Shown: piece by piece, positions 6,543 through 57,349 of the stretch
How the letters are laid out: every line of letters starts with the position of its first letter
Position numbering within the stretch: position 1 is the first letter of the stretch
Source: Rhytidiadelphus loreus
Taxonomy: Eukaryota; Streptophyta; Bryopsida; Hypnales; Hylocomiaceae
DNA length: 64,000 bases
Direction of reading: 5' to 3'
Assembly (NCBI GenBank): GCA_947034895.1
Contig: OX344763.1
Span: 39,369,025-39,433,024 of the forward strand
Made by a program: the position numbers and the translations under genes
The notes under the pieces: generated by a model
Databases searched by the model: none
Told to the model about the DNA's origin: nothing
What the model saw: only the letters and a program-made list of their open reading frames with translations

Positions 6543-6939
6543 TGCAGAAGTACCCGAAGTTATTCCATGGGTACCCGTAGAAGAAGAGAACGAGGACCAT
6601 GTGTAAGAGGAGAACCATTGACTCAGAAAGTGACTTTGTAAAGTATACTAACAGCCAAAAGTCGAGGCGGATGCAAACAAAACTGCTTGACAAAGATAGA
6701 CGAAAAATACATAGTGTGTTGTATATTGTAAATTTTGAAATGAAAATTGGTGAACATATTCTTTTTCTTTTTCTTCTTGTGATTCCAAAAAAGTATGACT
6801 TGCTTCATTTCGAGTTTGTATGAGAAAGTTATGCTTGATGGAGTAGGAGAAGACTAGTTATAGATTTTGAGGGCAGAATTTTGGGCACCCATAATTATGT
6901 GGTGAGAAAGTATCTAATTTTGAGATTTAATATGCCTAT

Positions 6940-7237
6940 GTATTGAATTATTAGTTCTTTAAAAAGGTAACACACTCTTAATTTGGAATGAGGAAGTGAA
7001 AATTATAAACTAGAGAGTGAAGTAGTGAGAGTGCCTTTGAATTGAAGAGAGAAAGCTATAAAAGTCAAATAGTATGATATTTTCACTTGAGATTTAAAGT
7101 GCTTGTATATATTTGTGTTAGCTTTTTGAAGAGGTATCACACTTTTAGTTTGGAATTTGAAAGTGAAAGTTATGGATTTGAAAGTGAAAAAGAGAGGAGA
7201 TGACTTCAAGATTGGAAGTCTCAACTTTGGAAAGCTA
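6940..7237. repeat. ~158-bp tandem repeat forming the left flank of the 19-kb element
   Basis: Two related units contain a block like TTAGCTTTTTGAAGAGG followed by CACACTTTTAGTTTGG, near 6,950 and 7,107. A third unit continues at 26,378-26,560 on the far side of the 19-kb element. Within the left flank, GAAAGCTATAAAAG at 7,051 matches the inferred uninterrupted junction (GAAAGCTATTAAGTAG), so the insertion lies inside one repeat unit. Confidence 0.7.
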
Positions 7238-7241
7238 TTAA
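7238..7241. repeat. TTAA target-site duplication, left
   Basis: TTAA directly precedes the left inverted terminus. The partner is at 26,374-26,377. Confidence 0.8.
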
Positions 7242-7253
7242 CCCCTCACTGCC
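7242..7253 (+). repeat. Left terminal inverted repeat of the 19-kb element
   Basis: CCCCTCACTGCC, exactly complementary to 26,362-26,373. The next bases (AGAGGGGACGAAATG) keep weak similarity to the other end. Confidence 0.8.
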
Positions 7254-7319
7254 AGAGGGGACGAAATGTGTCCTCACATAGTTTTCAGTCAAATTGAAAC
7301 AGTTGTAACTTTTGCATCT

Positions 7320-7790
7320 CATGTCCAAATTCAATAAAACTTGTTGGAAAAGTTGCGCTCCGTCTTCTAGTTTGTATGGTAAAATTTTCAGATCAATAAA
7401 AGATGAATCAAGATTCTAGAAGCCAATCAAAGTTCACAGGTTCAATTTGAGTTCACCAAACTGTATTTGATGGCTGAAACTTCGGGGGCTTGTATCTACT
7501 TTGTCAAATGTTTGTTTTCAATAAAAATTTATTGGGTTATGTTTCCCTTTCAGCCTAGTTATTGTGGTAAAATTTTCATGTCAATCCAAGCTTCTTTGAA
7601 TGTTTGGTAGCAATTCGAAATTTAAAATCCAGACATTTTTGGATTACAGTGAACTTTGGCGGCTTGTTTCTTCTACATACAATGTTTTTTTCCAATAAAA
7701 TTTGTTGGAAAAGTTGAGCATACTAGTCTAGTTTGTGTGGCTAAAATTTCATATGAATCCAAGTAGTTATGAGTGACTGAGACGCATTTT
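7320..7790. repeat. ~178-bp degenerate tandem repeat near the left end of the 19-kb element
   Basis: Three related units begin near 7,325, 7,505 and 7,683. Each contains a phrase like CAATAAAACTTGTTGGAAAAG, then a variable part, then GGTAAAATTTTCA. The first unit resembles subterminal sequence of the small TTAA elements (AACTTTTG... TCAAAATT). No gene is seen from 7,254 to 8,532. Confidence 0.55.
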
Positions 7791-8532
7791 AGTAGGAGGT
7801 TCAATATTATATGGTGTTTTCTGCAACTTTTCTTGTTATTTTTTGACATTTCAAAGCTATTTTGCAAACACGTTGAGTCAATTCAATGAAATCTTTTTTG
7901 ACCAATGTGGTTGTATGATGATTCTAAATCACTTTATAGTTTTAAGTTTTTCATTTGAGTAAGTTTAGAAATTGAATTTCACCTCCAAATGTGTTTTTAG
8001 GAAAATTTCAGCATCTTTTTTCACCACTAAAACATTATAATCTTTCAATCTATACGGTCAAATGACTCCAAATTTTATCTATGTCATCTCCAACATGTTT
8101 GCTACAAGATTGTACGGTTGCGATTTCTATACATCAGTGAACGCTATATTCACTATTTTGGGAGTTTTCCACAGAATTGAGAGTTTAATTCTAAGGCATT
8201 AGAATGTCCCGAGGCAAATTAAACGTCAGCAAACACATAGAAAGCAATCAATGGCAATGAAAACTATCATCGTATAGAAGATTTAGAAAAAATATACTCA
8301 AAATTATGTGCATTGCATCTCTATTAGTAAGGAAATTCATATCATTTACACATATTTGCTTTCCTATGTGTGCAATACATACTCGTCTATGCAATTACAA
8401 GTGTAGTATCCAAGTAATGATTGCGTGCCAATAGCAACCCTATGTTCCCACCTAAGTCAATAGTGAATTAGAACTCACAGGGACAAGCCTTAACATCATG
8501 TAACAGAAATGTACATATACGAAGCTCAACTA

Positions 8533-9177
8533 TCAACTGCACGACGTACTCTTCATCTTCTCGAGGGCCCTCAAAATTTCAGGCCCACGACTGTATCCCC
8601 CCCGGACACCTGCACCTTCTTGACGCATATGCTCTCTTTTTTGTGCTAGTAGTGACCTTCTCTCCCAAGAGTCCCAAGTAGGAGTGGAGGATTGAGTACT
8701 ACATGATCTCTCCGCATTTCTCTTTAATCTTGCTGATTGAGACAATGCACGGCAACGTGGAAGCAAAGGTCGAACGCCAGCAGGTCTAGTTTTTTTTTCA
8801 AACGAGAGCGGGTCACTTGGCGTATGGACTTTCACTTCTGGTGTCGTCATCAAACAATTAGCATCTCCGTAAAGCTTCCTCTGCGTCCCTTTCTCAGAAA
8901 TAGTTGGCAACGTTGACGAATCCCTGGCTGCTCTAGAGCGCAGAGGAGATGGCGAGCACAAAATTGGCAAGCACGGCCTCTTGTCAGGGGGGCTGTTTAC
9001 CACACCGTCTTCGACGTGCTTGATAGAGAAGTCCATGGTGGAATTAACAGTCGGGGCCGAGCAAAGGAAATTCCCCGTACTAAGTATGACGTATTGTCCA
9101 TAGTCGAGAATAGAGTCCTCAGACGCCTGACACGGAAGAATCTCAATAATCCTGGAACTGGTAGACCCGTTTCTCAT
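8533..9177 (-). CDS. Probable 3' terminal exon of the FCP1-like gene
   Basis: An open stretch of 214 codons read leftward, immediately preceded by a good splice acceptor (TTCTCTGTCAG just above 9,177). It encodes a proline-, serine- and arginine-rich tail with basic patches such as ARLKRNAERS and KREHMRQEGAGVRGGYSRG, and no recognised fold. Because it follows the FCP1-like exon on the same strand with a hairpin palindrome in the gap, I read it as the downstream exon. The donor joining it is unclear: the preceding frame stops at 9,412, and the best donor (GTATGC at about 9,397) lies beyond that stop. It could instead belong to a separate small gene. Confidence 0.45.
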   Translation of the reverse strand: MRNGSTSSRIIEILPCQASEDSILDYGQYVILSTGNFLCSAPTVNSTMDFSIKHVEDGVVNSPPDKRPCLPILCSPSPLRSRAARDSSTLPTISEKGTQRKLYGDANCLMTTPEVKVHTPSDPLSFEKKTRPAGVRPLLPRCRALSQSARLKRNAERSCSTQSSTPTWDSWERRSLLAQKREHMRQEGAGVRGGYSRGPEILRALEKMKSTSCS

Positions 9178-9290
9178 CTGACAGAGAACAAAAACAGAAT
9201 TAGCCGTAGAATTGTCAACGCATCATAAGTACAGATGGTTATGCTTGAACTTCAGATACATCAATTTCACGGTAAACATTATCCCAACTA

Positions 9291-9317
9291 CATTTTAGCG
9301 CGAGCAGCGCTAAAATG
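9291..9317. repeat. CpG-rich hairpin palindrome, inter-exon copy
   Basis: Arms CATTTTAGCGC and GCGCTAAAATG are exact complements around a 5-base loop. The palindrome lies between the two last exons of the FCP1-like gene. Confidence 0.85.
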
Positions 9318-9411
9318 CAATACAGAAATGCGCCAAAATAAGCGTATTACATTTGATACAATTTCTCTGGACTCTAAAAACACGACTAGCTGCATACCTC
9401 CAAAAACACGT

Positions 9412-10547
9412 CTAACTAACACTAGCTGACCCACGGAGGACCTCCATAAGATTTTCATACTCTCGACGACCTCGTTCTTCGCACAGCATCCGTCTCCCAA
9501 TCCTCCATTTTTTATTCTCTCTGAAAGACTTCAGACCATTGCTGCGGTTGACGTGCAATTGTTGGAACCAAGGAAGAAGGACCGTCAGAAGGAACGTGTC
9601 TTTGTCACCGTTTCCTCGGTTGCTCCAAGAATCCGCTAATATCACATTCTCACGCTTGTTCATGATGTGTTTGCGCGGACTATCGTCCACAATCACTGTA
9701 TTCTGAGAAGTGAAATTCCCGTGGAAGCCTGTGAAAAGGAAATCTAGGTTCTTAAGGAACAAATCCTTATTCGTTCCCGGTTCCTTGTAAGAGGTCAGCC
9801 TTCCGGCTCTATCCCTGCACTTAATAGTCTTGCAGGAGTCTTGCCCCAGAACGAGGAAGGGCCACCTTCCTTCTCGAAAGAGGTACACACAGATCTCATC
9901 GGTCGTGGTTTTTTTCATAGAGCTCCATATAGTGATTTTAGCTATCCTCCCTATCTCCTTCAAGAACTCAAGGCAATTTGGACGGACATAAACTGCTTTT
10001 GGTCCAACAATTGTACCGACCGTCGCAGAGTGCGGCTCTGACTCGTTTTGAAAATGCTTGGTTGAACTATTTGACTTCCAGTCCTCGCTGCGGCATAAAA
10101 TGCCATTGAGGTCTAGGACGACGTTCATCCACTTCTCTGCCACCCCAGACCTCAATGGACGATGGATGCCCTCGGAAGTGCCCTCACGAACTACTGTAGT
10201 ATCGGAGCCCTGCTAACAAACATATGAACGGGGAGCAGTTACGATCGTGAAATTGGCTTTGTTCGGCCGTCATGCGAAATCAAGTCATAGCCAGAGGGAA
10301 AAAATAGAAAAAATGTCTAATCACGCCTTAAGGGAACAAGGGACTATACCTTCTCCACTGTCGAACTTGAAGGCTGAACATCATTTTCACAACCAGTATT
10401 CACAGGATCAAGAGGTGACGTATCGTCATCGAGTTCTAGGAGTTCAGCTGTCGTGACTAGATTATCATCCTCAGTTTCAAAATGTGATGTCGTCACCAGT
10501 TCATTTTGTGTAGAAGGGAGGACATAGACCTCAAGACAACTTTCCAT
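9412..10547 (-). CDS. FCP1/NLI-interacting-factor-like HAD phosphatase with DLNG motif
   Basis: Two exons (10,547-10,350 and 10,209-9,412) join in frame across a 140-bp GT-AG intron to give about 331 residues. The second exon holds an FCP1-homology fold: VVLDLNGILC near residue 99, the motif with the nucleophile Asp; AKITIWSSM for motif II; LFLKNLDFLF; and VIVDDSPRKHI near residue 240, the acidic DDSP motif. The family dephosphorylates phosphoserine in proteins such as the RNA polymerase II tail. Here the second Asp of the usual DxD is Asn, as in a plant subgroup with DLNG/DINGLL, so activity is uncertain. The first exon is acidic (ELLELDDDTSPLDP). An acceptor just upstream of 10,560 suggests an earlier exon could exist. 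The gene lies on the same strand downstream of the GQHS-motif gene and is probably cargo of the 19-kb element. Confidence 0.7.
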
Positions 10548-10747
10548 ATCCACATGGCCTGCAATTCACGATTTGGAAAAGTTTCTCTGTGAGATATATA
10601 TTACATTTTCAGAGATAACTGTCTCTTACAATACAAAACTGAGTCCAGAATTGTCGAAACCAGAACTAATGTCTCTACCATGAACGTCCGATAAACATCG
10701 ATTACTGCTCCTATTTACAAAATTTGAGATCAATCTCTACCAAACAG

Positions 10748-10768
10748 TTTAGCGCGAGCCGCGCTAAA
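10748..10768. repeat. Hairpin palindrome between the FCP1-like and GQHS genes
   Basis: TTTAGCGCG and CGCGCTAAA form exact 9-bp arms around AGC, about 30 bp downstream of the GQHS gene's stop codon. Confidence 0.9.
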
Positions 10769-11880
10769 TCTATACAAGGCAATGATGACTAAGTGTTTAT
10801 TGGGCAGAACTTGCAGGTTGATCTTTGGTGGGCAGGGCATCACTTCCAGGCTCCACCTCGGAAGCATCACTAGACAGGTTCTGCCCAATGTCCGTCTCTG
10901 AGGGCAAAATCGGTGCAGCCTTCGGGGATGAGGGGTTATGAACAGGATCATCATCGATCGACAATGCAGGTGGAGACTCCGCTGCACTACTGGGAAGTGG
11001 CGGAGATACCGGCACAGGTAGCGATGGACTCGAGGCATTGCTGACATTAGAGCCAGACGGCAGACCTTGCAGCTCCAACACTGGAGTCACGGTAGGAGGT
11101 GGCAACGCTGCGATCGGCTCAACCCCAACCTTTTTGATCAAGATCTGCAGCATTTCTCTATTTTGCTGGGCTAGCTCTCGGTTGGTTTGAGACTCCAACC
11201 GCATCCACTCTTGATTACGCTTGTGCATTTCAAGGTTTTCAGCCCTCTCCTTCAACTGTTCCGCCCTCAACTGCGCCAGTGCAAGCTCGTTTTGCTGCTG
11301 CGTCAACTGCGATTGTTGCTGCAGATTAGCCAAGGAAACTGCATTCTGCACTGAAATCTCCGCCAACTGTTGCGCGATACTTGACATTGAATTGTGCCTC
11401 CTCTTCTTATGTGGCCGCCCAGACGGAGTAGCAGTCCTCGGCGTCCCAGGCAACAGAGGTAACATAGAGCTCGCCGATGAACCAGGTATATCTGTCGATG
11501 GTCGACTTGTAGGAGTTGCCATCTCATCGATCCCGAAAGGTCCATCTTCGTCGATGTCTTCCTCCTCCTCATCAGATTCCGAATCAGATGCAACATCATC
11601 ATAGCGTGGAACCTCCCTCCGCAGAGGATCACTCATTTCGGATGTCTGAGACGACCTCAGTTTTCTCTTTGCAGTGGAGGGTGCAGTACTTGGACCAGCT
11701 GCAGCAGCAGCCCTCGGGTACCCACTCTCAAGAAAGTCCGCTATATCTAGCGTCATTGCCTTTCTACAAATGTCTTCCCACCATGCTGATTGAGTACCCA
11801 TTCCAGTGGCGAAGACATTCACATTACTCATCTGCCAAGACAAAATTAAATGATTATTTCGATTATCAAAAAAGTCAAGT

Positions 11881-11907
11881 CGCTTTAGTGCAGCCCGCGC
11901 TAAAGCG
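11881..11907. repeat. Hairpin palindrome, intronic
   Basis: CGCTTTAG and CTAAAGCG arms surround a GC-rich centre. This is a slightly diverged member of the TTTAGCGCG palindrome family. Confidence 0.75.
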
Positions 11908-11979
11908 ACAGCTGGTACTAATGTGGAAACATAAATTGAGTGATAACATCATTCAGATCAACTGACATTGATATGTTTG

Positions 11980-12000
11980 TTTAGCGCGACTCGCGCTGAA
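11980..12000. repeat. Hairpin palindrome, intronic
   Basis: TTTAGCGCGA, one base, then TCGCGCTGAA: 9 of 10 arm bases pair. Confidence 0.85.
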
Positions 12001-13367
12001 GTGCAGTCACATTACTTACCACGGCCGCGCACGTAAGTTTCCCCCCAGTGAAAGCAGAATAGATTGACATGCCACTCTTGTAGAAGGCTTTCACGAGCCA
12101 CAAGTAAAATTCCATTCTCAACTCAGTGTTTGTATATCCGATACTCAAGCTCACTATAAGCGCGAGCTTTCAGGTATCGTGCCGTCTCTGGACACTCGAA
12201 TCCCTCTGGAATTTCCACCGTGTTCTTGTTTTGGGGATCCTGCAAGAAAATCAAGAACACTTTCTTCGGCGTCTTCGCTGCGGGAAGATCTCCGAGGCGA
12301 TCGTTCTTCCCAGCAGAGTACACGGAGTACAAAATTGTATACGAATCGAGAACGTCGTCAGATTCAATAAATTTGAGAACTTGGGCTTGCTCCTTCTCGT
12401 CACCGCAAATGAAGAGCCATGATGGAACATCTTCAAGTGCAGGGTTTTTTTTCGCCTCCATTGACGCGAGTACTTTGACGAAGTACGGTTTGTCCACCGT
12501 AGAGCTCTCCTTCTTCTCAATTCCTGGCAAGGACCTGAAGTCAATCACCCCCAACGCAAGATAGTTTCTAGTCTCCGCAGTCCACACCTTCTTTGGCCAT
12601 TCCTTGGTACTGTTTCCGAGGTACTCATAGGGCCGGTAGTGACCACTTGCTATCGGTTTCTCGAATTTTGATTTGTGCAGGAGAAACATCTTGAAGAAAT
12701 CATAGGCATCTTGGGACAGCTCAGTGATCGTCTTGTTTCTTGAAGACTTGTTCTTCGCTTTGCCAAAGTAGGCTTCTCCTGGTCTGTCGAGGAGTACATC
12801 CATAGTGGCGCTGGAGAAGAATTGTTCCTTTTTTAAGGCCTTCCAGTTCTCATTGATGATCTCGTTACGAGCATTCATGAGCCCAAGTTGAGGTTTGATT
12901 TCATGAAGCTCCTTAATCACGAGGTTCTTCCGCTTACAACGTTCAATCCACTCCTTGGTGCTGAAGCAGTCATCTAGGACTGAGGTGATACTCTTGACCG
13001 TGACCTTCGGGTAAGCATGATTGCGTTTTCCTCCCGACTGGTTCAGCAGATGTTTAGCAAGTTTTGCTATTTCATCATAGCTCAAATTACCCAGGTGCTT
13101 GAAGAATTCACGATTCAACATGCAACTCTCGGGATTCCAACCCGGTTTTTCATTGAACATCATGTTCGTGGCGGGGTTGAAGAGTTCTCCGTGCACGGCA
13201 GCGGTGATCACCTCGCTCCAGAGTCTGTACACCTCATCGGGAGCCGTGATGAGTCTCAGTTCGTTGGTTAGCTTCAGCTTTTCCTCCTTCGACTTTGTTT
13301 TTGAGATTTTCAAATTCTTCACAACGTCAATCATGGAGAATCTGACGTACATTGCCTTCTCAAACAC

Positions 13368-13482
13368 CTGAAACATGTTTAAGGAAATATCATCAGAGTT
13401 GAAAACATGTTCATATATCCCGAGAAATTAATGAAATGAATTTTCAATGTTGCAGTTTAGCGTGCCTCGCGCTAAAACGCAC
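13368..13482 (-). other. Intron of the GQHS-motif gene carrying one palindrome
   Basis: A 115-bp intron with donor GTGCG at 13,482 and acceptor TGTTTCAG at 13,368, phase 0. The palindrome at 13,456-13,476 starts about six bases from the donor, so a folded hairpin would sit next to the 5' splice site. Confidence 0.75.
13456..13476. repeat. Hairpin palindrome next to a splice donor
   Basis: TTTAGCGTG, CCT, CGCGCTAAA. One mismatch in the arms; otherwise the family consensus. Confidence 0.8.
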
Positions 13483-14981
13483 CTGGAATGCTTCTCTCTT
13501 GTGCCGGTTCTCGACGGTCCTTCTTGTGGCCACCAGAGATCCAACGGACTTTGTTTGCGTTGGATTCTCGGGCCTTCCCATGTCTTCCCACACTTTCCGT
13601 GCTCCCAGGATATTGGTCGCCTAAGATGGTTGGACCGCCACAAAATGATTTGTTCGGTTGTAATACGCGGAGATGGCTCGCAACTTCTCAGCGTCCTCTG
13701 ACCACACAACGAAGCAGTTCCATTTACGGAAGTGCTCCCTCTCATCCACGTCCACGTTGTTGTCGTCATCGAACATGTATTTGCTTGCTTCAACACTATG
13801 TTGTCCGTTGATGATGTAAAATATTCCATCCTCAATGTCCTCCCACCTTGTCGGCTTGTGGCTGAAGCCGACAGGCATAACACATAGTGTTTGTTTGGTA
13901 CTCTTGTCAGGTATGTTGAGTAGATAATTCACCATGTCTTCGACAATGCGGTTTTCTTTGGAACGGATGTTATATGTCGGAGGTGCCTCAATCAACTGGG
14001 ATATGTCGATCTCCTTCTTCTCATCGAGAGCGAAGACGTAAGCATCATCGAAGGTGCTCCAAAATTTCTTGTACACCTGGCTGACGTGCTCGTAGTCAGG
14101 TTTGTTCTCTGTTGCCCGGGAGTGTGGCACATTTTCCATTTCGTCCACGTAACTTCCTTCTGCCACCTCTGATGTTTCAGATTCCTTTGGTGGCTTTGTC
14201 TTTTCGAGGGTTGGGGTAGCAGCTTTTTTCCCCTTCCGTGGTTGGGCCTTGGATGCTGGCGTCGCAGGCTTCCTCTGACCTCGACTGGCACTGGGCTCTT
14301 GCTTAATCTTCAATTTTGATGTCTGGCTGACTCCGGTATTCAAGATCTCCTTTGATACAAATCGAGGTCTGTTATTTTCTTGTTGCATCTCCATCTTTCC
14401 CTTGAGCGTGTGAAAATCGTTGAAGAGCATGCGATTTTACTGCATAGTTTCTTCCACGAAAGAGGTGTCCCGTTGGCATTGTTCCACTCATTGTTGTCCA
14501 GCTTCTTTTCCAGCTCTTTGATCTCGTCGCGGTAGGGAGTTGGTTCGAGACTCGAGAGGAAGGGGCTGAGATGGAAGGGAATCAGGACGGAGTCAATGCA
14601 AATAGCGAAATGGTATTGATCCTGTCGGCAAGATCCAGGAATTATTGTCATGCATTTGACTTTGATCATGGGATGCATGTCAGCTTCTACATCCTTAATT
14701 TTCTCGTGGAAGGAGAGCTGTAGGTGGCACTGTGCATTCCTGAACTTGTAAGAGAAGTAGATTTGGTTTATGAAAGGAATCATGAAGAAGCTCCATGATT
14801 CTACTCTCTCTGGTTCTTTGAACTCCCAATATTCTCCTTCGATGAGGTTATCGTCTGCACTTTTATCGTCCTCGTGCAGTTGGACTTCGCACTTCTTGAA
14901 GTACATTTCCAGTGCCTCGATCTGGTTTTCCATTCTGCATCACACGATAGAGGAGTGAGATAATTTGTGATGTGTTTGTTG

Positions 14982-15585
14982 TTTAGCGCGAACCGCGCTA
15001 AAGTGCACGGGGTACATTGTGTGCGAGTTTGTGTTTACAGGGTCTAAGCGGGTGTTTGATGTTTAGCGCGGCTCGCGCTAAACAGCATGTGTATTATTCT
15101 TGAGGTCTCTATGTTGTCTGACTTGCTGGATGTGCTCCCGGTATCTTGTTTGTTGAGGTCTGTATCATTGGGTGATTGCTTTTTAGCGCGAGTCGCGCTA
15201 AAGAGTATGGGTAGTTATTTTGTTGGTGTTTCTGTGTAGTCCTGGTGTCACGTATTTTATGGATTTCTGGGATCATACTGTGTGGATGAGTGGGGGGTTT
15301 GTAGTTTAGCGCGAACCGCGCTAAAGTGTTTAAACTTGAGGTTGCGGTACGAACTCTGTTAGTTCTTGTGCATAGAGTTTTGCGGGCATTGGTGTCCTCG
15401 TATACGGTATTCGGGAAGTCGTTTTTGTAGGGTTGAGGTGTTCTACGAATGCGATGATGGAGTATACTATTGAATTGTTTCAATCACGGTCCGGACTGGA
15501 TGCAGTTTAGCGCGACTCGCGCTAAACAGTCAAATTTATGATTGTAGATTTTTTGGAACTGTCATTTAGCGCGAGTCGCGCTAAA
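14982..15585. repeat. Cluster of six hairpin palindromes upstream of the GQHS-motif gene
   Basis: Members lie at 14,982-15,002, 15,062-15,082, 15,182-15,202, 15,305-15,325, 15,506-15,526 and 15,565-15,585. Each is TTTAGCGCG or TTTAGCGCGA, a short centre, and the complement. Arms are exact in all six, while the sequence between them is unrelated. The cluster begins about 50 bp upstream of the first ATG of the minus-strand gene, where a promoter or leader would be. Confidence 0.9.
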
Positions 15586-15599
15586 ATGACTCGTTCTGT

Positions 15600-17160
15600 T
15601 CGTGTTCCAGGCTTTAGGTTTATATTAGGGTTTCTAATTTACTTGGGCAACTTCTGAAATTTCGTAACCAACGGTTCGGTGCCAGTAATTCATTCTCAGA
15701 TTTTAGGGTTTCCTTCTAACTAGACAATTGGAACTAATTTTGCCAGCAATACAGTTGCAATCGATAAATAAATTTTCGATCTTGGAGGTTCAATTCGGCT
15801 GTGGAACTGAGTACGTATTCCAACTTCTGTCTATTACTGGACTCTAGATTGGGAACAACAAAACTGCATGCTTGAATCAGAAATGTCACTGAATCTTGAA
15901 CTCTAGTTAAACTAGTGACATTTCTGGCACTGGTTGCTCCTAGTTCTGACATTTCTGACTCTCAACAACGGTCGTATGATTCTGCAGTTCTGGCTCCTAG
16001 TTTAAGCAACTACAACTCTCAGTAACTCTCAGCAACTCTCATATGTTCAGAAAAACAACGAAACCCTAAATCGAATCTCTAATCCTACTTCAAGTCCAGC
16101 AATGACGGGTAAAATGCAATTCAAGTGCAGCAATCACGAGTAAAATGAAATTCAAGTGCAACAATAACGGGTTAAATGCAATACCTCACAGATCAGGTTA
16201 CACTGACTGGTCGAAGCTGGTGTGCCAAGCTCCTCCAAGTCAGCAACTTCCTCCGAGACCTCCCAATTTCACGAACTACCTTCCTTCATGAGCGCTCGAG
16301 CTGTTCTGCATGGCCACAAGAAATCAAGTTGAATTCAACGCAGCGGCCCAAGTAAGAAGCAGAATTCTGAGAATGTGAGAATCCGCAGACTAGCAAATTG
16401 AATCCGCAAACTAACAAATTCAACGCATACTAGCAATGTGAGAATCCGCAGACTAGCAAATTCAACGCATACTAGCAAATTGAATCCGTGCAAGCCAGAA
16501 CTTCGGCGTAGAAAAAATTTCGTAACCTCGGACCCTGCGGAACGGACCCTGCACGCGTGCTTACCCTAAACCTACGATGAAGGGAGTAACAACATAAACC
16601 CAAACGAAGCTAAACCGCAAATGTGAATGACTTTACATGTCTTGGCGGAGCTGGCGATGGACGGCCTGCAAGCGGGGGGAGACTACCCAGCCAACCCACC
16701 GGACAACCACCACGACAACCACCGTAACAACCACCGAGTGAACCACCGCGAATTCCAAGAGCTTCGGTAAACCTCCTCCGCCTACGATGTCGCGATCCTC
16801 CTCGAAGCACCGCCAAGACCGCGCTAATCTCACACAGCAACAAATTTCGTAACCTGCGACGCCGCCGAAGACCTCGTTGATCTCACACAAACGATGAAGA
16901 CCTCACTGACCACACAAACGATCAAGACCACAAACGATCGGACCAAAACATGGAGAGCGGAAAAAAACGAGCGCCAAACCCTAACTCATTTTGGGTGACG
17001 GACCTGATGCGGATGCGGACCTGATGCGATACGTACCTGCCCGATACCCGTACGTACCCAATGCCCGTGCCCATCGTTGTCCATATTCGCCGAATGTTTG
17101 TACCTGCCCGATGTTCATACCCGCCCATATGTTTGCTTTGAATCGAAGCCTCCTTTATAC
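15600..17160. other. GC-richer non-coding stretch with short tandem repeats
   Basis: No convincing coding frame. Three ~32-bp units with TTCAAGTGCAGCAATCACG occur at about 16,090-16,185. Short units with AATCCGCAGACTAGCAAATT occur at 16,375-16,495. From about 16,500 to 17,110 the DNA is visibly richer in G, C and CpG than its surroundings, which would suit a promoter or leader region of the minus-strand genes, but no TATA box or start could be assigned. Confidence 0.4.
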
Positions 17161-18869
17161 GTAGGCCTTCTTCAACAATATTTAATACCTTAACGCATAT
17201 ATCCTTTTCGAAATTTTGACTCTTTTTGTTTTATACCTTTGTACAGTAACACTTTTGACTCTTCTTGTATTATACCTTTGTACTGTAATACCTTTCATTT
17301 TTTTTGTAATATACCTTCATACAATAACACCATTTATCAAAATTTCCTGAAATTGTACATAAAAGAAGGTTGTCTTCTGAAGATTCAAATATTACATTGG
17401 ATGAATGACAAGGTAGTTGGATTAAAGAACGTCTGCAAGACCTTTGTTCATTGTGCACAATAAAAACGTAAAAGTGCTTAAGGGTACATGTCTGTTGTAA
17501 CCTTTGATTGTGAACCACTTAGCCTTGTAATGCTACCGTGGACACTAAATGTCCAATGCATGACAGTGAATCCTTCTGTAATATATAGAAATGCAACTAT
17601 TCATCCTTGAAATTGTGAAAAAAAAGGGAACATCTTCTACAGTATTTTTACTTTCAAATAATACTTTTCTATTAATTAAAACAATTGATTCCGCGGTATT
17701 GATTTCTTTAAAAAAACACCTTCAATCTCTTTCTGAAGTTAAGGAATTTGCGCTTGTATTTTTTCCGTATCAATGAGGTATAAAAATTGTGTACCACGTA
17801 TTAAGAAGATTTTCATTTCAAACATTTCATTTTTATGTAATTATTTTATTTCTACAATTGCCATTACTTAGAATATTTGAAGACGATAGTTAGTCGAAAC
17901 CTATAGCTCATATTTATAATTTTTGAATATCGATTGTTGAAGAAGTACTAAACTTTCCGTGTAGAGACCACACCCGAAATCCAAAATATGGGAATTTCAT
18001 TTTTATTTTAACTCAAAGAACCCCTAAACTACTCTATTGGCCCACTTCAACAAATGAATGTTTTATTGCACAATCTTCTTGTACTAAATGAAGTTCACAA
18101 ACTTCTCACAATTGCATTGGATGTAAGAAAACTATAATTGAAATGAAAGCCCAAATAATTGTAAGTAAGAGTGATTTAATTTTTTAACCAAAAATTCAAA
18201 CAACATGATCGTGAGGTTGGAGTAAAACAAATTATTAGCTGTTAGAGGGAAAAAAAATACAAAGTTCTCATTTTTGAATTTAAAGTATATAGTTAATTAT
18301 TGTAAGAAATAACTCAAATTTAAAATCATACATAAGTTAAATTTACTTGTTCGGTCCCTTTCACCACTCATTGAAAATAATTAGTCACCATAAATAGACA
18401 TTCATTCTCATAATTGTCATTCATGATTCTACAAGATATTGAAAGTGTGCCACTAGGTACAATGATTTGTGACTTATGATTGGCATAATTGACAGTGCTC
18501 TCCTTGTCTCTTTCAATGCTCCAAGTTTTTGAAACTTCTATAATTATTTAAAATGTACGCGCTCTTTCAATCTTTCTTCATGACATTTGACATTTCATGA
18601 ACCCTAAATACGATAGACTGTATCAAATGTGGTATATATAATGTATAAAAAAAATAGCTTGCACTCAATGTATTATATCCATGATTATTTTCTATTGTAA
18701 GTAAACTTACAACTTCAACATTTAGAACCCTAAACCCTTAAATAAATGATTTTTTATAGTTTGGGGAATTATACGTAAAGTACAAAAAGTTTAGAAAAAC
18801 AAAAAAAAGTAATTCAATGGATTTTTGTACGCCAAGAACTTCTATTTTAATGAGCGATGTGCAGTAGTT

Positions 18870-19600
18870 AACAAAAAATAAATGTTAGCCCAGAAGCCAT
18901 GGGATGAATCAAGTAAATGGAATGAAAAAAATATGTACAAGTTCTAAATAACTTGAACAATTACAATTCATGGAAATCATACATGTACGTTACTTTTATG
19001 CATTTCCATACGCTAGAGAACTTTTTGTTAAATGTGCCATGCGCTGTAGTTAACAAATACTAAAGCCCTAAATCCATGAAATAAATTAAGTAAATGGAAT
19101 GGAAAAAATATGTACAAGTTCTAAATAAGTTGAACAATTACAATTCATATAAATCATACATGTACGTTACTTTTATGCATTTTCGTATGCAAAAGAACTT
19201 TTCATTTGCAGAGCATTGTGTTATAGTTTATACTTGAAGCCCTAATTAAAATCAAATGACGTACCATATTTAACAATTGCAACTTGCACAACATGTTTCG
19301 CATTTTGTTTTACGTGAATTTCATGACTTCATATGTTTTTGGACATCAAAATACAGGGTTTGGTCCTTTTTGAACATTTGATTTCACGTCCACCGTCATT
19401 CAAAGTTACTATTATTTATATATTTTTTTGAATCGTTGAGTTTGTAAAGAATTGCAACTTGCACAACATGGTTCCTATTTACTTCTACGTGATTTTCATG
19501 AGATTCAATTTTTTTGGACACTAAAGTACAGGGGAAGGTTCGTGCCCCAATTTTTAATTCCACGTAGTATGTCATTCGAAGAGACCATTAGTTACGTATT
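18870..19600. repeat. Two consecutive ~178-bp tandem duplications
   Basis: A unit with ATGTACAAGTTCTAAATAA and CATACATGTACGTTAC occurs near 18,930 and again ~178 bp later. A different unit with TTGCAACTTGCACAACATG occurs near 19,274 and again near 19,453. Confidence 0.65.
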
Positions 19601-20169
19601 TTTTTTAATCCTAAATTTACATGGTGTTTAAAACTTCCATTGTTTTCCTTACATTCTTTTAAATTTATTGTTTCTTTTCTTGTTTTAAAAATTTTAACTA
19701 CAGTACATAGCTTTTTCAATGCAAGTTCTCTTGGGTAGGAAGTTGCCTACAAGTAACAAGAATGAGTTTTTCTCCTCAATTTACAAGTTTACTGTATTTT
19801 CAAATTCTACATACTTTTTACTTTCATCTTATTAGTTTAGGGTTTAGGTTTAGAGCTTTAAAATTTTTTAACTACAACACACGTCATGTTGAAGAAGAAG
19901 TTCTACATGTGTGCCTTTGAAGTGCAACGAAGAATGACACTCAATTTTTTTCACTCATTATACTTGACTTCTCAACAAAATAAAAATTATAATCTTATTG
20001 ATTTCACCCCCAAGAAACTTTAGAAATGGATGCATAAATTTGCTCTTTCATTTGCTCGCAATTTTATTTCCAACACGTGAAGCTCGGAAGTACAATGAAC
20101 CATCACTCCGAGTTTTTGTTAGAATGTGATGAATTTGACCTCATTTTTAGTAATGCCATGCATTATTAG

Positions 20170-20200
20170 TATTCCAAACCCTAAACCCTAAGCCTGACCC
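20170..20200. repeat. Short telomere-like (telo-box) motif
   Basis: AAACCCTAAACCCTAAGCC, fewer than three units of the plant telomere repeat. Such telo-boxes are common in plant promoters; this is too short to be an interstitial telomere array. Confidence 0.5.
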
Positions 20201-20673
20201 TAAATTTTCCTAAACCTAAAGTTCAAATATGACTACAGTAAAGTGGAATTTCAGCATTATAAAAAATAATTTTCCAGAGTCATATTTTGCACCATAAAAT
20301 ATGCCTTCCCTATAAAAGGAAAAGGAATTTCCCAAATTGTAGACACTATAAAATCGAAAAAAAAATTGGACTTCCAGAGGATTGGAATGTCATTTCAACA
20401 AAGCAAGAATCCTCTTAATATAATCAAAAGTATTTCACGTATGCTATTTAAGTACTTCAGAAAAGAAGCATGTAATAGGCGACTAAATAGGATGTGACTA
20501 AAAATTAAAATTCTGCCATGCGTCCGTGACACTTTTCGAATTACAAGAAGACACGTCAGTGGACGAAAGTCAACAAGCATTAATATAGGGAATCCTCAAG
20601 ATGCACCTCACCCCATAAAATCCGTTGGGACTGTGGTTTATTCTAGGATTAGTTGGTGCTTTATAGTGTAAAC

Positions 20674-20972
20674 CTGCGCAAGAAATCAGGAATCCCGGGG
20701 TTTCTGAAATTAGACAGAGGGCTTTCAAAATCATAAAATGGGTTGGCGCAATTTTCTTCCCGCCAAGAATTCAAGTGTGCGTCGTCAACCAAGATGCAGT
20801 CATCTCCTTCCACCTTTCTCTTCAACCGAGTCGATTTCTGTACGCGTTGCTCTCGTTGTGTGCGTCTTGTACTTGCATTGTTAGTTTCTGTGCAGAATTC
20901 AAGAGTTTCTTCTGGGGAACACAGATCCACCGAGTAGTTTGTGTCCCATCCTTCTTTCAGGAGGTACTTCAT
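20674..20972 (-). CDS. Small exon of an unrecognised minus-strand gene
   Basis: About 100 codons open from an ATG at 20,972. The sequence starts MKYLLKEGWDTNYSVDLC, contains a basic segment (TRRTQREQRVQKSTRLKRKV) that could act as a nuclear signal, and ends NPGIPDFLRR. A possible donor (CAG|GTTTAC) lies at 20,673; without it the frame stops at 20,661. I do not recognise a family. Composition is unlike the AT-rich surroundings, which favours a real exon. It lies on the strand opposite the DUF7869-like gene, with the palindrome array between them. Confidence 0.4.
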
Positions 20973-21322
20973 CGCATCTCGTTGATGTTACTATACGTGT
21001 ACGTTCTGAATTAGTTTTTAAACATGGAGCGCGAACTTGAAGGAAGTCAAGTCAATTAACTTCAGTAGCTTCACAGGGGCAATTGTTAGCGTCCGTAATC
21101 ACTTATGAAGTCTACATATCATGTCACATCTTTGCCAATACAGTAGATTTCCATCACGTGAGGTTGTTACACAAATTCCAATGACCATTTCATGATACTG
21201 TCTGGAAATATTGCCTTAATTTTCGGGCTTTCTAAAAATAGTAATTTCACTATTCTAAAATGAATGAGTTCTGCAAAACACGGGATTGTTGAGCAAATTA
21301 ATATAAAACCCATTGATTGCAC

Positions 21323-21685
21323 TTTAGCGCTAGTCGCGCTGAAGTACATGTCTCCTCTTTGTGAATCCATCGATTGCACTTTAGCGCTAGTCGCGCTAAA
21401 GTGCATGTCTCCTCTTTGTGAATCCATCGATTGCACTTTAGCGCTAGTCGCGCTAAAGTGCAAGTCTCCTCTTTGTGAACCTGTCGATTGCACTTTAGCA
21501 CAACAAGCGCTATAGTGCATGTGTCCTCTTTGATAATTGTTTGATTGCACTTTAGCGCGACTAGCGCTAAAGTGCATGTCTCCTCTTTGATAATCGTTTG
21601 ATTGCAGTTTAGCGCTAGTCGCGCTAAAGTGCATGTATCTTCTTTGTGAATCGTTAGATTGCACTTTAGCTCTAGTCACGCTAAA
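21323..21685. repeat. Seven-unit palindrome array with exact 57-bp period
   Basis: Palindrome starts fall at 21,323, 21,380, 21,437, 21,494, 21,551, 21,608 and 21,665, each exactly 57 bp apart. Units read TTTAGCGCTAG TCGCGCTAAA with the linker GTGCATGTCTCCTCTTTG and GATTGCAC. The fourth and seventh units are degraded. Here the complementary arm extends outward into GCACTTTAGCGC / GCGCTAAAGTGC, longer than in the 15-kb cluster. Worn relatives follow near 21,710 and 21,901. The array lies about 370 bp upstream of the ATG at 22,057. Confidence 0.92.
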
Positions 21686-22050
21686 GTGTATGTCTTCTCC
21701 ATGTAAATCGTTCGCGCTAATGATCATATGCGACCTCTATGTGTAATTTCACTTTGACAGTAGTCTTGATAGTATAGATGTGGTTTCTAAAGAATCAGTA
21801 GAATGAACTTTAGTGCTAGTGACAAGGATGCCCACATATTTTCAGTGGAGTATCTCCCATTTGCACTTTAGACGTATTGTCCATCCAAACTAAACTACAC
21901 TTTAGCGCAACTCGCCCTAAAATACATCTGTACCTCTTCTGTCCTCATTCAATTGTGGTATTGAAGAACAGATTTAGCGTAACTAATGTGACTTTCATGG
22001 ATTATGTTATTCATTAGCCAGAGAACTTCAATTGTTGATTGTTTTGTACA

Positions 22051-22056
22051 GGTTCC
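22051..22056 (+). other. Possible splice acceptor ahead of the DUF7869-like gene
   Basis: TTTTGTACAG ends at 22,051 or a base before it, followed by GTTCCATGG. A 5' leader intron carrying the palindrome array is therefore possible, though no donor was identified. Confidence 0.3.
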
Positions 22057-23158
22057 ATGGATCCTCTTGCGAACCCGGATATTGACATGGACTTGTCGGG
22101 CGATGAGATACAAATGATTCAAGAGATGAATGTTGACATTCCTAATTGTGAAGGGATTCCGCGTCTGATGTGGAATAAGAAGTGTATTAAGCTGTATAAT
22201 GCTGAAGGCTTACTTGTTCGTGAAGGTACTTGCTACAGCGTGAGCTCTTATCTTGTTCTTGGTGCCAGTGGTCCTCTCGGTGATACTCATGTATCAGTGC
22301 ATATTTCAAAGTCCCATTCTGAGGTGGACCTTCCTGAGGAACTGTTTTACTCGTTGGTAGCTTGGTCAATTGAATTGGTTCATTATCGAGGAGCAAGTCT
22401 TCACGACCATGAAATTAGGGACAATTTCAACCGTCTGCAAGCATCTCTTCTAAACCTGCCATCTGAATCATCTACAAGACCATATGCTAGTGCCATCAGA
22501 AACCCGCCTCGGGAGACTGGTGTGAAAGCTAAAGAACTCCTATCGCAGGAGTCAATTAACTTGGTGTCTAGCAAAGTGTGTTGCAGCAAGAATTGTGTCC
22601 AACCGTTTCCTAGGGAGAAAATTTGAGCTTTCCGAGAACGCATGTACCGAAATTCAACTTTCAAGCATAGAGCTTTCATGAAAACTGATGTGCACAGACA
22701 GATTCATGAAGGTTCACGCCGAAGGAAGATGGTGACAATTGAAGAGATAAATGTGTGTTTACGCGCATGGATGCATATTGCAGGGGTTGCTGAATCTACA
22801 TTCTATCGATACTTGAAATACATGAAGGATGATCGGGAAGCAAGGGATCACGACAATACTGGATTGTTGAAGCCTAGAAAACATACTCAACAAGCCACGG
22901 CTTCATTGAAGTGCATCCTAGACAAGGAGGCTGATCACATGCCTCATCGTACCCGAACTTTGAAGGAAGGTGAGAAGGTTGTGTCCAAGATTCTTCCGGC
23001 ATCATTCCTATGGAAGGACCAGTTACAAAAGCTCAATGAAACCAATGTGGCTTTTGGTTTGAAAGAGATTTCAACTTCAACCTTGAGCAAGATAAGGTCC
23101 ACAAAGTTTTCTGAATTTGATGTGAAGAAACCAGGGGATAATTTTGCTCGGTGTGCTA

Positions 23159-23758
23159 CTTGTGACCCCGGGGAGGACACTCCCTATGTTTTAGCAACCT
23201 ACGTGCGGCGGAAAAAGTAAAACAAGTAATACACCTTAAAATTTAATTTCTTTTTCAAAAAAAAAATTATGGATAGATTTTACTACTTTAGAAGTTTATG
23301 TTTTGAATTATTGGTATTTTTTTGTGCTAATAGTAATTAGTTATAAATTTTTGAAGAAAAAAGATACACTGTAAAGCTGAAAATAACTTTCACACCTCTA
23401 TATTATATAAGAAAAAAAAATGAAAAAAATGAAAAAAAAATGATATAGAATAGCTTTCTATTGAAAGTTTATTTTGGTTGAATATTGATGCAATAGTCAT
23501 CTTCATGTGAGCTCTATAAATATTTTAGTTGGAGAACATGCCATTTTAGTTCATTTTTCAACCCTTTTTAGACAATATATCTTATGTTATTTGGAATTGA
23601 ATTTTTTGTCAATAGAAACCTTTAGTCATTGTTAAACAAAACTCAAAATTTTAGAATGAAATTATAGTTTATTCAAGGTGAATTACATGTATTACTTTTT
23701 CCACCGCCACACGTGGGTACCCCAAATGTAGTGAGAGTGTCCTCCCCTAGCTTGTGAC
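23159..23758. repeat. 8-bp target duplications bounding the MITE in the DUF7869-like gene
   Basis: CTTGTGAC occurs at 23,159-23,166 and again at 23,751-23,758, directly outside the MITE ends. Confidence 0.85.
23167..23750. mobile_element. MITE (584 bp, ~85-bp terminal inverted repeats, 8-bp TSD)
   Basis: The left end is CCCGGGGAGGACACTC and the right end, reversed, is CTAGGGGAGGACACTC. Similarity continues inward for about 85 bases (GGCGGAAAAAGTAA..., ...AATTTC). The perfect 8-bp duplication favours hAT; the long inverted repeats would also suit a Mutator-like element (9 bp with one mismatch). A related element lies at 56,795-57,349, sharing interior sequence in reverse orientation. Confidence 0.8.
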
Positions 23759-25486
23759 AAATATAATGAGCTCATCAAGGGTGCTATCAATGGCTCCCAA
23801 ACAGCTATGAAGTGGTCAAGGAGGTTGATTAAGCATCTCACCGTCGCTCGAGCACATAGGGATGTGTATTACATAAACCGAGACTTGTCCTTCAACTCTC
23901 CGCATGAGTGTCTTACCATCATACACGACAAGATGGATCATGCAAAAACCGCTTGTCCTGTCTTCTCTCACAAGAGTAAAGAACTTGATGGCCTCATGAA
24001 GCTACCTGTATCTGTGACCAGCATGATTGCGCATGGTCATGCGGATGTGCGCTACGCGCATTATGGCTTGGATGTTTTCTCGCATGACTCCAACTATACC
24101 ATTGGTTCAATGGCAAAGTTGTTGCGAGATTTAGAGTTAGCACCGAAGTCGTCTTCTAGAGAGTTGTTCACAAATGCAAAGTCCTCTAATTTGTTTAAGG
24201 CTGTGCTAGAGGGTGCAGACATGTGCCATGCGTCTTTACCTCCGTTGCCAAATACCTTAGCTCCAGCTACGCGACTACCACCCATTTTAAATGTGCAAAT
24301 GGACAATGCTACTGGAGACAATAAGAATAGATTTGTCTTCTGTTTTTGGTCTCTTCTTGTAGCAAACAAGATCTTCCGGGAAGTTTATGTGAACTTCATG
24401 ATCGTGGGTCATACTCATGATGACATTGATGCTTTATTTGGAAGATGGAGCATGGATTTGAAGAAAGAGAATTTCCCAACTGTGCCAGCTCTAATGAAGT
24501 CCTTCATGGATGTGGATTCCGTCCCCACTATCCCTCACCTTATTGAGGAAGTACCCGATTTCAAGGGGTTTATAGCAGGATCATTTGTAGATGGAGATGA
24601 TATTCTTGTTGGGCACACAAGGCCACATCAATTGAAGTTCTACCTAGATTCAACAGGTTGCCCTGTCATGAAGTACAAACTTTTCTACACTGATGCTGAT
24701 TGGTTAGGTGAAGGAGGAGGAGGCATTAAGTTGTGGAAAGAAGATTCTGAAGGGCAAAGTTTGTGGCCACGCGGTTCACCATTGCCTGTTCCGTTGAAGC
24801 CTATGAAAGGCTTGGAAGACATCGTCAAAGGTATGTCGGGGTTTGTAAAGTATTGGGAGAATTTATGCAATGCAGACGTCACTGGGGATTACCGAAGACG
24901 TTACGAACATTTGGTGAACTATTTGCGTGGCGTGAAGGTAGCGTTGATGGAACCGTTACCTACCTTTCATGTTTTGAAGGACGGTTTTTGGCCAACTACA
25001 CGTATTCAAGCAAGTTGCGTAGATGAATTAGACGATGATGGTGAGGATCGTGAAGAGTTTGGGGAAGATGACCCGTATGTCGGGCCATTGAGTGGTCGCC
25101 CGAATCCATCTTTTCGAGTGGCTCGAGATTTATTTGAAGGCTATTTTGCTGCAGTTCGGCCTGCTGATGGTGACTCGCACCCAGTTTGGATTGCAAGGGC
25201 ATTGTCTGATCCAAACTCCAATCCAGAGTATCCAAATTGTGTCCTTCTTCAATACTTCCGTCCAACATCAAGGAATCAGAATGTTCAAGATTTCTACACC
25301 AGATGGGACAGCGAAAGAGGTTTACGTTGGAGGGTTGATGAAACTGAACTTCCGGTTTGGCAACACACGGATGCTCTTATGACAACGTGGAAGTCGAGGA
25401 TCCAGAAAGACATTGTGGAGTGTATGATCAAGATCCCTGCTATACAAATTGAAGTCATCAACGAAAGCTTGACTTCTTATAATTGA

Positions 25487-25940
25487 GAAGCGATATCCAC
25501 ATATGTGTATATGTGGCATGTTTTGTTTTGGATTGAACATCCTTATATTGTGTGTAATGGATGGAATTTGTTTATTGCAGTAGATTGCGTAGGTTTAAGT
25601 TTGGTTTGGTTTGATTTATAATTTGGTATTGCTTGTATGTTTTAGAATATATGTTTAATTTATATAAATAAGACTATTCAATTTCGATTTTAATGTATTT
25701 TTTTAATGTACTTCTGAGTTTAATATCTTACATGTTTTTCCCATCTTTTTATTTTATTTTGAATAGCATTTATGATATAAAAATCTATGACCAGTTAAAG
25801 TGAAAGTGTGAGGCCATTGAAAAAAATGGGTAGTGGGTATAACCACTTTGTTTTTGTTAATCGTGTTAAGCACTTGTCACATTTCGGATAGGGGTCCAAT
25901 TGATTGTTACAACATTTCTTCCTGTCGGATTCACTAGCAG
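25487..25940. other. 3' region of the DUF7869-like gene, AT-rich
   Basis: No further frame is open. T-rich and AT-rich sequence after the TGA/TAA cluster at 25,484 is consistent with a plant 3' UTR, but no single polyadenylation signal can be singled out. Confidence 0.35.
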
Positions 25941-25941
25941 T

Positions 25942-26055
25942 ACCAAGTCATGCATGTCTCTCAGTCGCTCATACGAGTTCAACGGGAATCGAACCCGGAC
26001 CGCCTGAATGAGATAATCAACCCCTTACAACCAACCACAGAGCTCATGACTTGGT
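25942..26055 (-). repeat. tRNA-derived (SINE-like) segment enclosed by an 11-bp inverted repeat
   Basis: Read on the minus strand it has GGTTCGATTCCCG, a canonical tRNA B box, preceded by GTGGTTGGTTGTAAGG, which resembles an A box. GAGCTC and GAACTC could pair as a poor acceptor stem. The anticodon arm is not convincing, so it is not called a functional tRNA. ACCAAGTCATG at 25,942 and CATGACTTGGT at 26,045 form exact inverted ends. It lies about 300 bp inside the right end of the 19-kb element. Confidence 0.55.
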
Positions 26056-26361
26056 GTTCTATATTGCATGATCTTATGTATTTTAATAAAAACATTAGTC
26101 ACTCACAAATCTAAGCTATGTTCATGAAGGACTTTGTATGTCACTTCACTCTCATTTTAATGGAAATTGCACTTAAAAAACTAGTAATTCTATTAGTTAT
26201 CAACACAAATTATTTCCTGAAAATTCATTTGTATTGGTATCAAAATCAACAATATTATTTTGAGAGGGTCCAAAACTCCCAAAATTTTGAATATAACATT
26301 AGTGACATTTAAATTTATAGCACTTCAAAAGCAATGATGATTTTAACCCATTTTGACCTTA

Positions 26362-26373
26362 GGCAGTGAGGGG
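26362..26373 (-). repeat. Right terminal inverted repeat of the 19-kb element
   Basis: GGCAGTGAGGGG, exact reverse complement of 7,242-7,253. Confidence 0.8.
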
Positions 26374-26377
26374 TTAA
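26374..26377. repeat. TTAA target-site duplication, right
   Basis: TTAA directly follows the right inverted terminus. The partner is at 7,238-7,241. Confidence 0.8.
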
Positions 26378-26640
26378 GTAGGGATATTATCTTTTTTAGC
26401 TATGAAATTTGAAGAGATAGTGTAAAATTTTATTAGCTTTTTGAGAAATTGTCACACTTTTGGTTTGGAATTATTAAGTAAAAGTTATGGGCTCTGAAGT
26501 GGAGGGATGTACAATTGCCTTTGAAATTGAGAACGTCAATTTCAACAAGACATAAAATATGAAAAATATATTTTCTAGCTATGAATTTTGGAGAGGTTGC
26601 ACAATATTTTGTTAGCTTTCCATGAAGCTAAAGTAGATTT
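26378..26640. repeat. Continuation of the ~158-bp tandem repeat, right flank of the 19-kb element
   Basis: TTAGCTTTTTGAGAAATTG followed by CACACTTTTGGTTTGG matches the units at 6,950 and 7,107. This shows the two flanks were once contiguous. Confidence 0.7.
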
Positions 26641-56794: not shown

Positions 56795-57349
56795 CTCAAG
56801 GGTGCACTTAGTTCTACTACAACAAACCACATGCGAACAACTGGTTTCTAATAAACTATAATTTCAACCTAAAAATTTGAGTATTGTTTAATAATGACTA
56901 TAGGTTTCTATTGCCAAAATTTACAACTCAAATAAAATATGAAATGATTTCTAGAAGAGGTTGAAAATGAACAAAAATGGCATATTTTTCAACTGAAATA
57001 ATTATAGAGAAGACATTTAGATGACCATTGAATCAATATTCAACTCAAAATGAGCTTTCAATAGAGAGTTATTTTTCAAAAAAATATATTCATTTTTTAG
57101 ACCTTTTTTTCTTATATAATATAGGAGTGTGAGTTATTTTTCAGTTCTACAATGTATCTTTTTACTTCAAAAGTTTGTAATTAACTATTACTAACAAATA
57201 AAAATATCAATAATTTAAAATATAAACTTTTAAAGTAGGAAAATCTATGCATATTTATTTTATTTTATTTAAAATTCAAAAAGTATATAAGGGGTCTAAA
57301 GTTTTGTTTGCATGTGGTTTCTAATGGACACTCTAAGTGACCCCCCGAG
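56795..57349. mobile_element. hAT- or Mutator-like MITE (555 bp), 8-bp TSD ACATTTGA
   Basis: ACATTTGA occurs at 56,787-56,794 and 57,350-57,357. The ends are CTCAAGGGTGCACTTAG and, reversed, CTCGGGGGGTCACTTAG, extending inward to ACCACATGC. Interior sequence near 57,040-57,260 is the reverse complement of the middle of the MITE at 23,167. Confidence 0.8.

What the first reader, a model, noticed from the sequence alone, without database searches (positions are those of the whole stretch)
7238..26377. A 19.1-kb TTAA-targeting transposon with several host-like genes
Seen directly: CCCCTCACTGCC and its exact complement sit at the two ends, each next to TTAA, and the flanks on both sides are parts of one ~158-bp repeat whose unit reads through the empty site. 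Everything unusual in this stretch (palindromes, intron-bearing genes, GC-rich segments) stops at these borders. Known: TTAA duplication is typical of piggyBac and of some Sola elements, normally only a few kb long. Inference: this is a giant cargo-carrying DNA transposon of a type I cannot name.
Basis: partly seen in the sequence, partly recalled or inferred. Interest (0 to 1): 0.92.

Follow-up and report, generated by a model that had tools for sequence, protein, structure and literature searches.

The report
Giant moss transposon inside smaller transposon
The reported 19-kb jumping gene is really two jumping genes, an 18.2-kb giant with its own ends sitting inside a roughly 1-kb relic of another kind, and the giant belongs to a dispersed family that carries extra genes and repeated palindromes.

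Summary
TTAA|CCCCTCACTGCC belongs to a ~967-bp piggyBac-type non-autonomous element: in 16 of 20 sampled loci window 7238-8140 adjoins 26296-26377 with no interior. A 5.1-kb element with the same ends encodes a piggyBac transposase.

The giant lies inside it at 8140-26300 (18,161 bp), with 29-bp inverted ends and an AGTG duplication (8136-8139/26301-26304). The genome holds 106 such ends (control 0). 24 of 26 facing pairs carry an exact 4-bp duplication (mispaired control 0.6%) and 22 of 26 hold a scored DUF7869 gene. Two other copies are colinear apart from about 15.0-17.3 kb.

DUF7869 models as an integrase/DDD-transposase fold, with middling match scores. That, the 4-bp duplications, size and moss relatives fit the Sola superfamily; direct comparison with Sola was not possible.

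The unusual part is an accessory gene (NGQHS-motif region, coiled coil, FCP1-like phosphatase) and 19 noncoding palindromes, none elsewhere in the window. They may form an element-encoded regulatory system.

The parts
6920..7237 (.). left flank: two units of a ~167-bp host repeat (6920-7029 and 7087-7196, 73% alike)
7238..7241 (.). TTAA, left target-site copy of the piggyBac-type element
7242..8139 (+). left ~0.9 kb of a ~967-bp non-autonomous piggyBac-type element (starts CCCCTCACTGCC)
   Evidence: 18 of 20 sampled loci match here, main alignments 71-83% identical, mostly 78-83%
8136..8139 (.). AGTG, left copy of the giant's 4-bp target-site duplication
8140..26300 (.). giant transposon, 18,161 bp, Sola-like
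   Evidence: fetched copies align from 8140 (one alignment from 8136) to 26296-26303 and then diverge
8140..8168 (+). left terminal inverted repeat AACGCTATATTCACTATTTTGGGAGTTTT
26272..26300 (-). right terminal inverted repeat (reverse complement AATGTTATATTCAAAATTTTGGGAGTTTT; 25 of 29 positions as on the left)
8533..9222 (-). gene E, 229-aa open frame (stop to stop), no Pfam match; 186 database proteins at E<=0.001
   Evidence: 11 contig lengths shared with DUF7869 hits
9412..14933 (-). accessory gene C-B-A: region with an invariant NGQHS motif, coiled coil, FCP1/NIF phosphatase domain at its 3' end; interrupted in this copy by an in-frame stop near 13.62 kb and frame changes near 14.44 and 12.13 kb
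   Evidence: one protein in three Physcomitrium gene models, P0122/P0123/P0125
22057..25486 (+). gene D: DUF7869 protein, candidate transposase; broken here by an in-frame stop at 22.62 kb and by an insertion
23167..23750 (.). 584-bp element nested in gene D (98% identical copy in L028)
9294..15585 (.). 11 palindromes TTTAGCGC-N5-GCGCTAAA at 9294, 10748, 11884, 11980, 13456, 14982, 15062, 15182, 15305, 15506, 15565: introns, 3' side and upstream region of C-B-A
   Evidence: 0 of 19 palindromes overlap coding exons as I drew them
21315..21921 (.). 7 tandem 57-bp units, each with the palindrome, plus one more at 21901, upstream of gene D; palindrome number varies between copies
26301..26304 (.). 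AGTG, right copy of the giant's target-site duplication
26301..26373 (-). right ~75 bp of the piggyBac-type element
26374..26377 (.). TTAA, right target-site copy of the piggyBac-type element
26378..26619 (.). right flank: the same host repeat family (spacing 179 bp)

Best explanation
Two nested DNA transposons, with a third inside. First, a ~1-kb piggyBac-type non-autonomous element inserted at a TTAA in a ~170-bp host repeat. Later an 18.2-kb giant, probably of the Sola type, inserted into that element at AGTG, duplicating 4 bp. Later still a 584-bp element broke the giant's DUF7869 gene. The giant moves as a unit between its own 29-bp inverted ends; the DUF7869 protein (RNase H-like fold) most likely binds the ends and cuts the target with a 4-bp stagger. 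SHOWN: borders, nesting, 4-bp duplications, dispersed copies, shared gene content in the copies examined. INFERRED: that DUF7869 is the transposase, that the family is Sola (about 0.75), and that the C-B-A protein and the palindromes serve the element's own expression. The confidence given is for the nesting, the borders and the family of copies.
Confidence: 0.95

Rival explanations
1. One reading: one 19.1-kb TTAA-targeting giant transposon of unnamed type ending at 7242/26373.
For: Perfect 12-bp inverted ends and TTAA at both borders; the flanks read through as an empty site.
Against: Of 20 sampled loci with these ends, 16 have a partner at 0.72-1.04 kb and 1 is a 5.1-kb piggyBac; 3 are unresolved (L012 and L024 match the small element but lack a recognisable partner end; L013 does not match the window's ends and has only a weak candidate partner at 2.6 kb). 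None of the 20 showed an exact copy of the giant's palindrome. Giant copies elsewhere end at 8140/26300 with other flanks.
Confidence: 0.02
2. The ~967-bp elements are internal deletions of a TTAA-bounded giant, and the giant's inner ends are a deletion hot spot.
For: The small copies share both end sequences and one junction.
Against: The junction carries a 4-bp duplication and inverted repeats in this copy, and 23 other pairs at other sites show the same ends with 4-bp duplications of their own. The TTAA ends are shared with a 5.1-kb element carrying a piggyBac transposase.
Confidence: 0.01
3. The giant is a DNA transposon of a superfamily other than Sola (for example Ginger or Academ, which as I recall also make duplications of about 4 bp), or of a new one.
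For: No direct sequence link to a known Sola transposase was made; Pfam gives only DUF7869.
Against: The review PMC10741241 gives Sola a DDD transposase, 4-bp duplications, some elements over 15 kb, TIRs of 11-1124 bp and presence in Physcomitrella (passages); PMC9033089 lists 'Physcomitrella Sola1' (table passage). No integrase-family Pfam match in the proteins scanned.
Confidence: 0.22
4. The giant is a virus-derived or virus-transposon hybrid element.
For: Large size and accessory genes.
Against: Nine proteins from the giant scanned against Pfam gave only DUF7869 and NIF; no capsid, polymerase or packaging family. Viral-family libraries were not searched.
Confidence: 0.02

Closest known systems
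Sola superfamily of DNA transposons (Sola1/Sola2; Physcomitrella Sola1)
   Same: DDD-type transposase fold (by model), 4-bp target duplications, inverted ends, moss relatives, size over 15 kb reported for some members (PMC10741241 and PMC9033089, passages)
   Different: Sequence membership not tested. The C-B-A accessory gene and palindrome arrays are not mentioned in the passages I read
piggyBac non-autonomous elements (for the TTAA borders only)
   Same: TTAA duplication and short ends shared with a 5,092-bp element in the same genome that encodes a PF13843 transposase
   Different: Only the ~0.98-kb shell belongs to it; the 18.2-kb interior does not
Arabidopsis VANDAL21/VANC anti-silencing system
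   Same: Element-specific short DNA motif in noncoding parts (introns and upstream regions), often in tandem repeats whose copy number varies between copies; a second, non-transposase gene (PMC5735166, passages)
   Different: The motif here is a 21-bp palindrome; no relation between the accessory proteins was tested; binding and demethylation untested

Membership tests
Sola | 4-bp target-site duplication | tested here: met
   24 of 26 facing end pairs; 0.6% in 650 mispaired controls
Sola | terminal inverted repeats (11-1124 bp) | tested here: met
   29-bp ends, 106 genome matches at <=3 mismatches, control 0
Sola | DDD transposase | tested here: inconclusive
Sola | sequence similarity to known Sola transposases | not testable with these tools
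   Repbase not held; the defining paper PMC2727372 is not in the library
Sola | found in a moss, some members over 15 kb | tested here: met
piggyBac (7238-8139 + 26301-26377) | TTAA duplication | tested here: met
   this locus; 15 of 20 sampled ends have a partner with exact TTAA
piggyBac (7238-8139 + 26301-26377) | ends shared with an element encoding piggyBac transposase | tested here: met
   L010: 5,092-bp element, TTAACCCCTCACYGCC at both ends, PF13843 E 3.2e-69
piggyBac as the giant's own family | DDE_Tnp_1_7 transposase inside, TTAA at its borders | tested here: not met
   only DUF7869 and NIF among the scanned proteins; the giant's borders carry AGTG here and other 4-mers elsewhere

The most novel reading that the evidence does not exclude
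The giant family carries its own sequence-specific activation or anti-silencing system: the C-B-A protein (or a partner) recognises the 21-bp palindromes in both promoter regions and in its introns, and brings its FCP1-type phosphatase (in hosts, as I recall, acting on the RNA polymerase II tail) to keep the element transcribed. This would be a counterpart of VANDAL/VANC, reached independently in mosses.
Probability: 0.2. Interest if true: 0.78.

Novelty: new variant of a known kind. Interest (0 to 1): 0.5.

Why it matters
It fixes the true ends of a family of large gene-carrying transposons in a moss-like genome. It ties Pfam's unexplained DUF7869, which has many moss relatives, to those elements as their probable transposase. 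The accessory gene and motif arrays make a testable case that giant plant transposons carry their own expression control. It also shows how a nested insertion can look like a single giant with false borders.

Tried and rejected

Papers: 'DUF7869' 0 papers; Physcomitrella + TTAA + 'target site duplication' 0. In the listings I saw titles and abstract starts, and none names this element; the library is open-access only. PMC9587614 (KolobokP): abstract and outline only, not used. PMC4455052: passages.

Not done: genome-wide searches for gene C and for the palindrome, because the genome search did not answer them. In their place two copies were examined along their whole length, and palindromes were counted in fetched loci: 48 exact in 50,939 bp of giant loci, 0 in 200,000 bp around the TTAA elements.

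Dropped rows: of 106 giant ends 100 were listed and used; of 78 TTAA-type sites 20 were fetched at 10 kb; of 1817 first-look DUF7869 candidates 75 were scored (35 of 75 without internal stops); of 271 and 186 protein hits 120 each were listed; only alignments over 600 bp were printed. The comparison of ages rests on the 20 sampled small elements; a closer one among the other 58 sites is possible.
Full report
The observation. CCCCTCACTGCC occurs twice in the window, at 7242-7253 and, inverted, at 26362-26373, each next to TTAA. The flanks are units of a diverged repeat (spacing 167 and 179 bp). Joined, they align through the junction to neighbouring units with moderate support: 81 against 64 for the better part alone and 63 for the best shuffle, and 80 against 54 on the other side. 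An earlier alignment did not span the junction.

Whose borders are they? In the window's own genome (G000, 407 Mb, 489 contigs) TTAACCCCTCACTGCC has 78 exact sites; the reversed control has 0. By my reading of that list only this locus has a facing exact pair within 25 kb. I fetched 20 of the 78 at 10 kb. 16 of 20 have a partner end 719-1036 bp away, and 15 of those end in exact TTAA; six of the 20 share one flank and probably sit in another repeat. 18 of 20 match the window's left part. In 16 of 20, window 7238 to about 8132-8140 is followed directly by about 26296-26303 to 26377. One of the 20, L010, is a 5,092-bp element with the same ends and a piggyBac transposase (PF13843, E 3.2e-69). 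L013 matches neither.

The giant inside. Gene D of the window (DUF7869) has many relatives in the genome: 75 scored places out of 1817 first-look candidates, 35 of 75 free of stops. Four of them, fetched with surroundings, match the window up to 26296-26303 and then differ from it and from each other. Three left-end stretches start matching at 8140 (one at 8136, inside the duplication). The ends are inverted repeats of 29 bp, 25 of 29 positions alike in this copy. Searching them with up to 3 mismatches gave 106 sites (59 + and 47 -), control 0. Of the 100 listed, 26 neighbouring pairs face each other within 80 kb, 0 are tandem and 2 point outward; the other 48 ends are unpaired. 24 of 26 pairs show a 4-bp duplication and none a longer one; 650 mispaired controls give 0.6%. 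Here it is AGTG, at 8136-8139 and 26301-26304. Sizes are 17.5-20.8 kb in 16 of 26 pairs, larger in 9 and 9.5 kb in 1; 22 of 26 contain a scored DUF7869 gene, ending 749-871 bp from one end in 20 of the 22. Two copies fetched along their whole length are colinear with the window, except that about 15.0-17.3 kb of the window did not align well there.

The palindromes. There are 19 copies of TTTAGCGC-N5-GCGCTAAA with 0-2 mismatches; the 12 exact ones all have a 5-base spacer, and 0 of 19 overlap exons as I drew them. They lie upstream of C, upstream of D (as 57-bp tandem units), in introns of C-B-A and beyond its 3' side. In 8.2-kb stretches around D, one copy (L031) has 29 exact palindromes where three others have 3, 4 and 6, so the array changes in size. 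There are 48 in 51 kb of fetched giant loci and 0 in 200 kb of other fetched loci.

How it most likely works. D binds the 29-bp ends, excises or copies the element and joins it to a target cut with a 4-bp stagger. The C-B-A protein and the palindromes probably serve control of the element's own genes. The Arabidopsis VANC system, where an element-encoded protein binds motifs that build up as tandem repeats in noncoding parts (PMC5735166, passages), is the nearest parallel I know; whether it applies here is untested.

Order of events, from nesting: host repeat, then piggyBac-type element, then giant, then 584-bp insert. In line with this, the giant is 95-99% like its two closest fetched copies (82-97% for a third), while the main alignments of the enclosing element to its 18 matching relatives are 71-83% identical. 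Only 20 of the 78 sites were sampled.

Place among known kinds. Sola elements are described as having a DDD transposase, 4-bp duplications, variable inverted ends, some over 15 kb, and presence in Physcomitrella (PMC10741241, passages; PMC9033089, table passage). What could be tested fits, but the DDD evidence rests on a model and no Sola sequence was at hand. I file it as a probable Sola, and as a new variant because of the accessory gene and motif arrays.

Noticed in passing
44943-46397 and 62546-64000: Identical direct repeat of at least 1,455 bp (100%), running off the window end, with a BAH-domain open frame in each copy (45319-45936 and 62922-63539); the left edge did not look like an LTR start to me.
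   Followed up: partly
23167-23750: 584-bp element with GGGGAGGACACTC-type inverted ends and a duplication of about 7-9 bp, 98% identical copy in L028; weaker inverted copy (81%) at 56850-57266 in the window.
   Followed up: partly
L010:4409-9500: 5,092-bp piggyBac-type element with TTAA at both ends and a long PF13843 frame: a candidate source of the enzyme for the ~967-bp elements.
   Followed up: partly
L012, L015, L018, L019, L022, L026: Six of 20 sampled TTAA elements share the same left flank (ctggcattccaaat), so one insertion has probably been copied inside another repeat.
   Followed up: no
G000:C1:76754854-76797001 (part in L031): A giant copy of 42 kb whose 57-bp palindrome array is greatly expanded (29 exact palindromes in the 8.2 kb seen).
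   Followed up: no
G000:C1:48055731-48096450, C3:66433508-66484116, C4:927960-983383: Facing end pairs 41-55 kb apart with intact 4-bp duplications: nested insertions or extra cargo, not examined.
   Followed up: no
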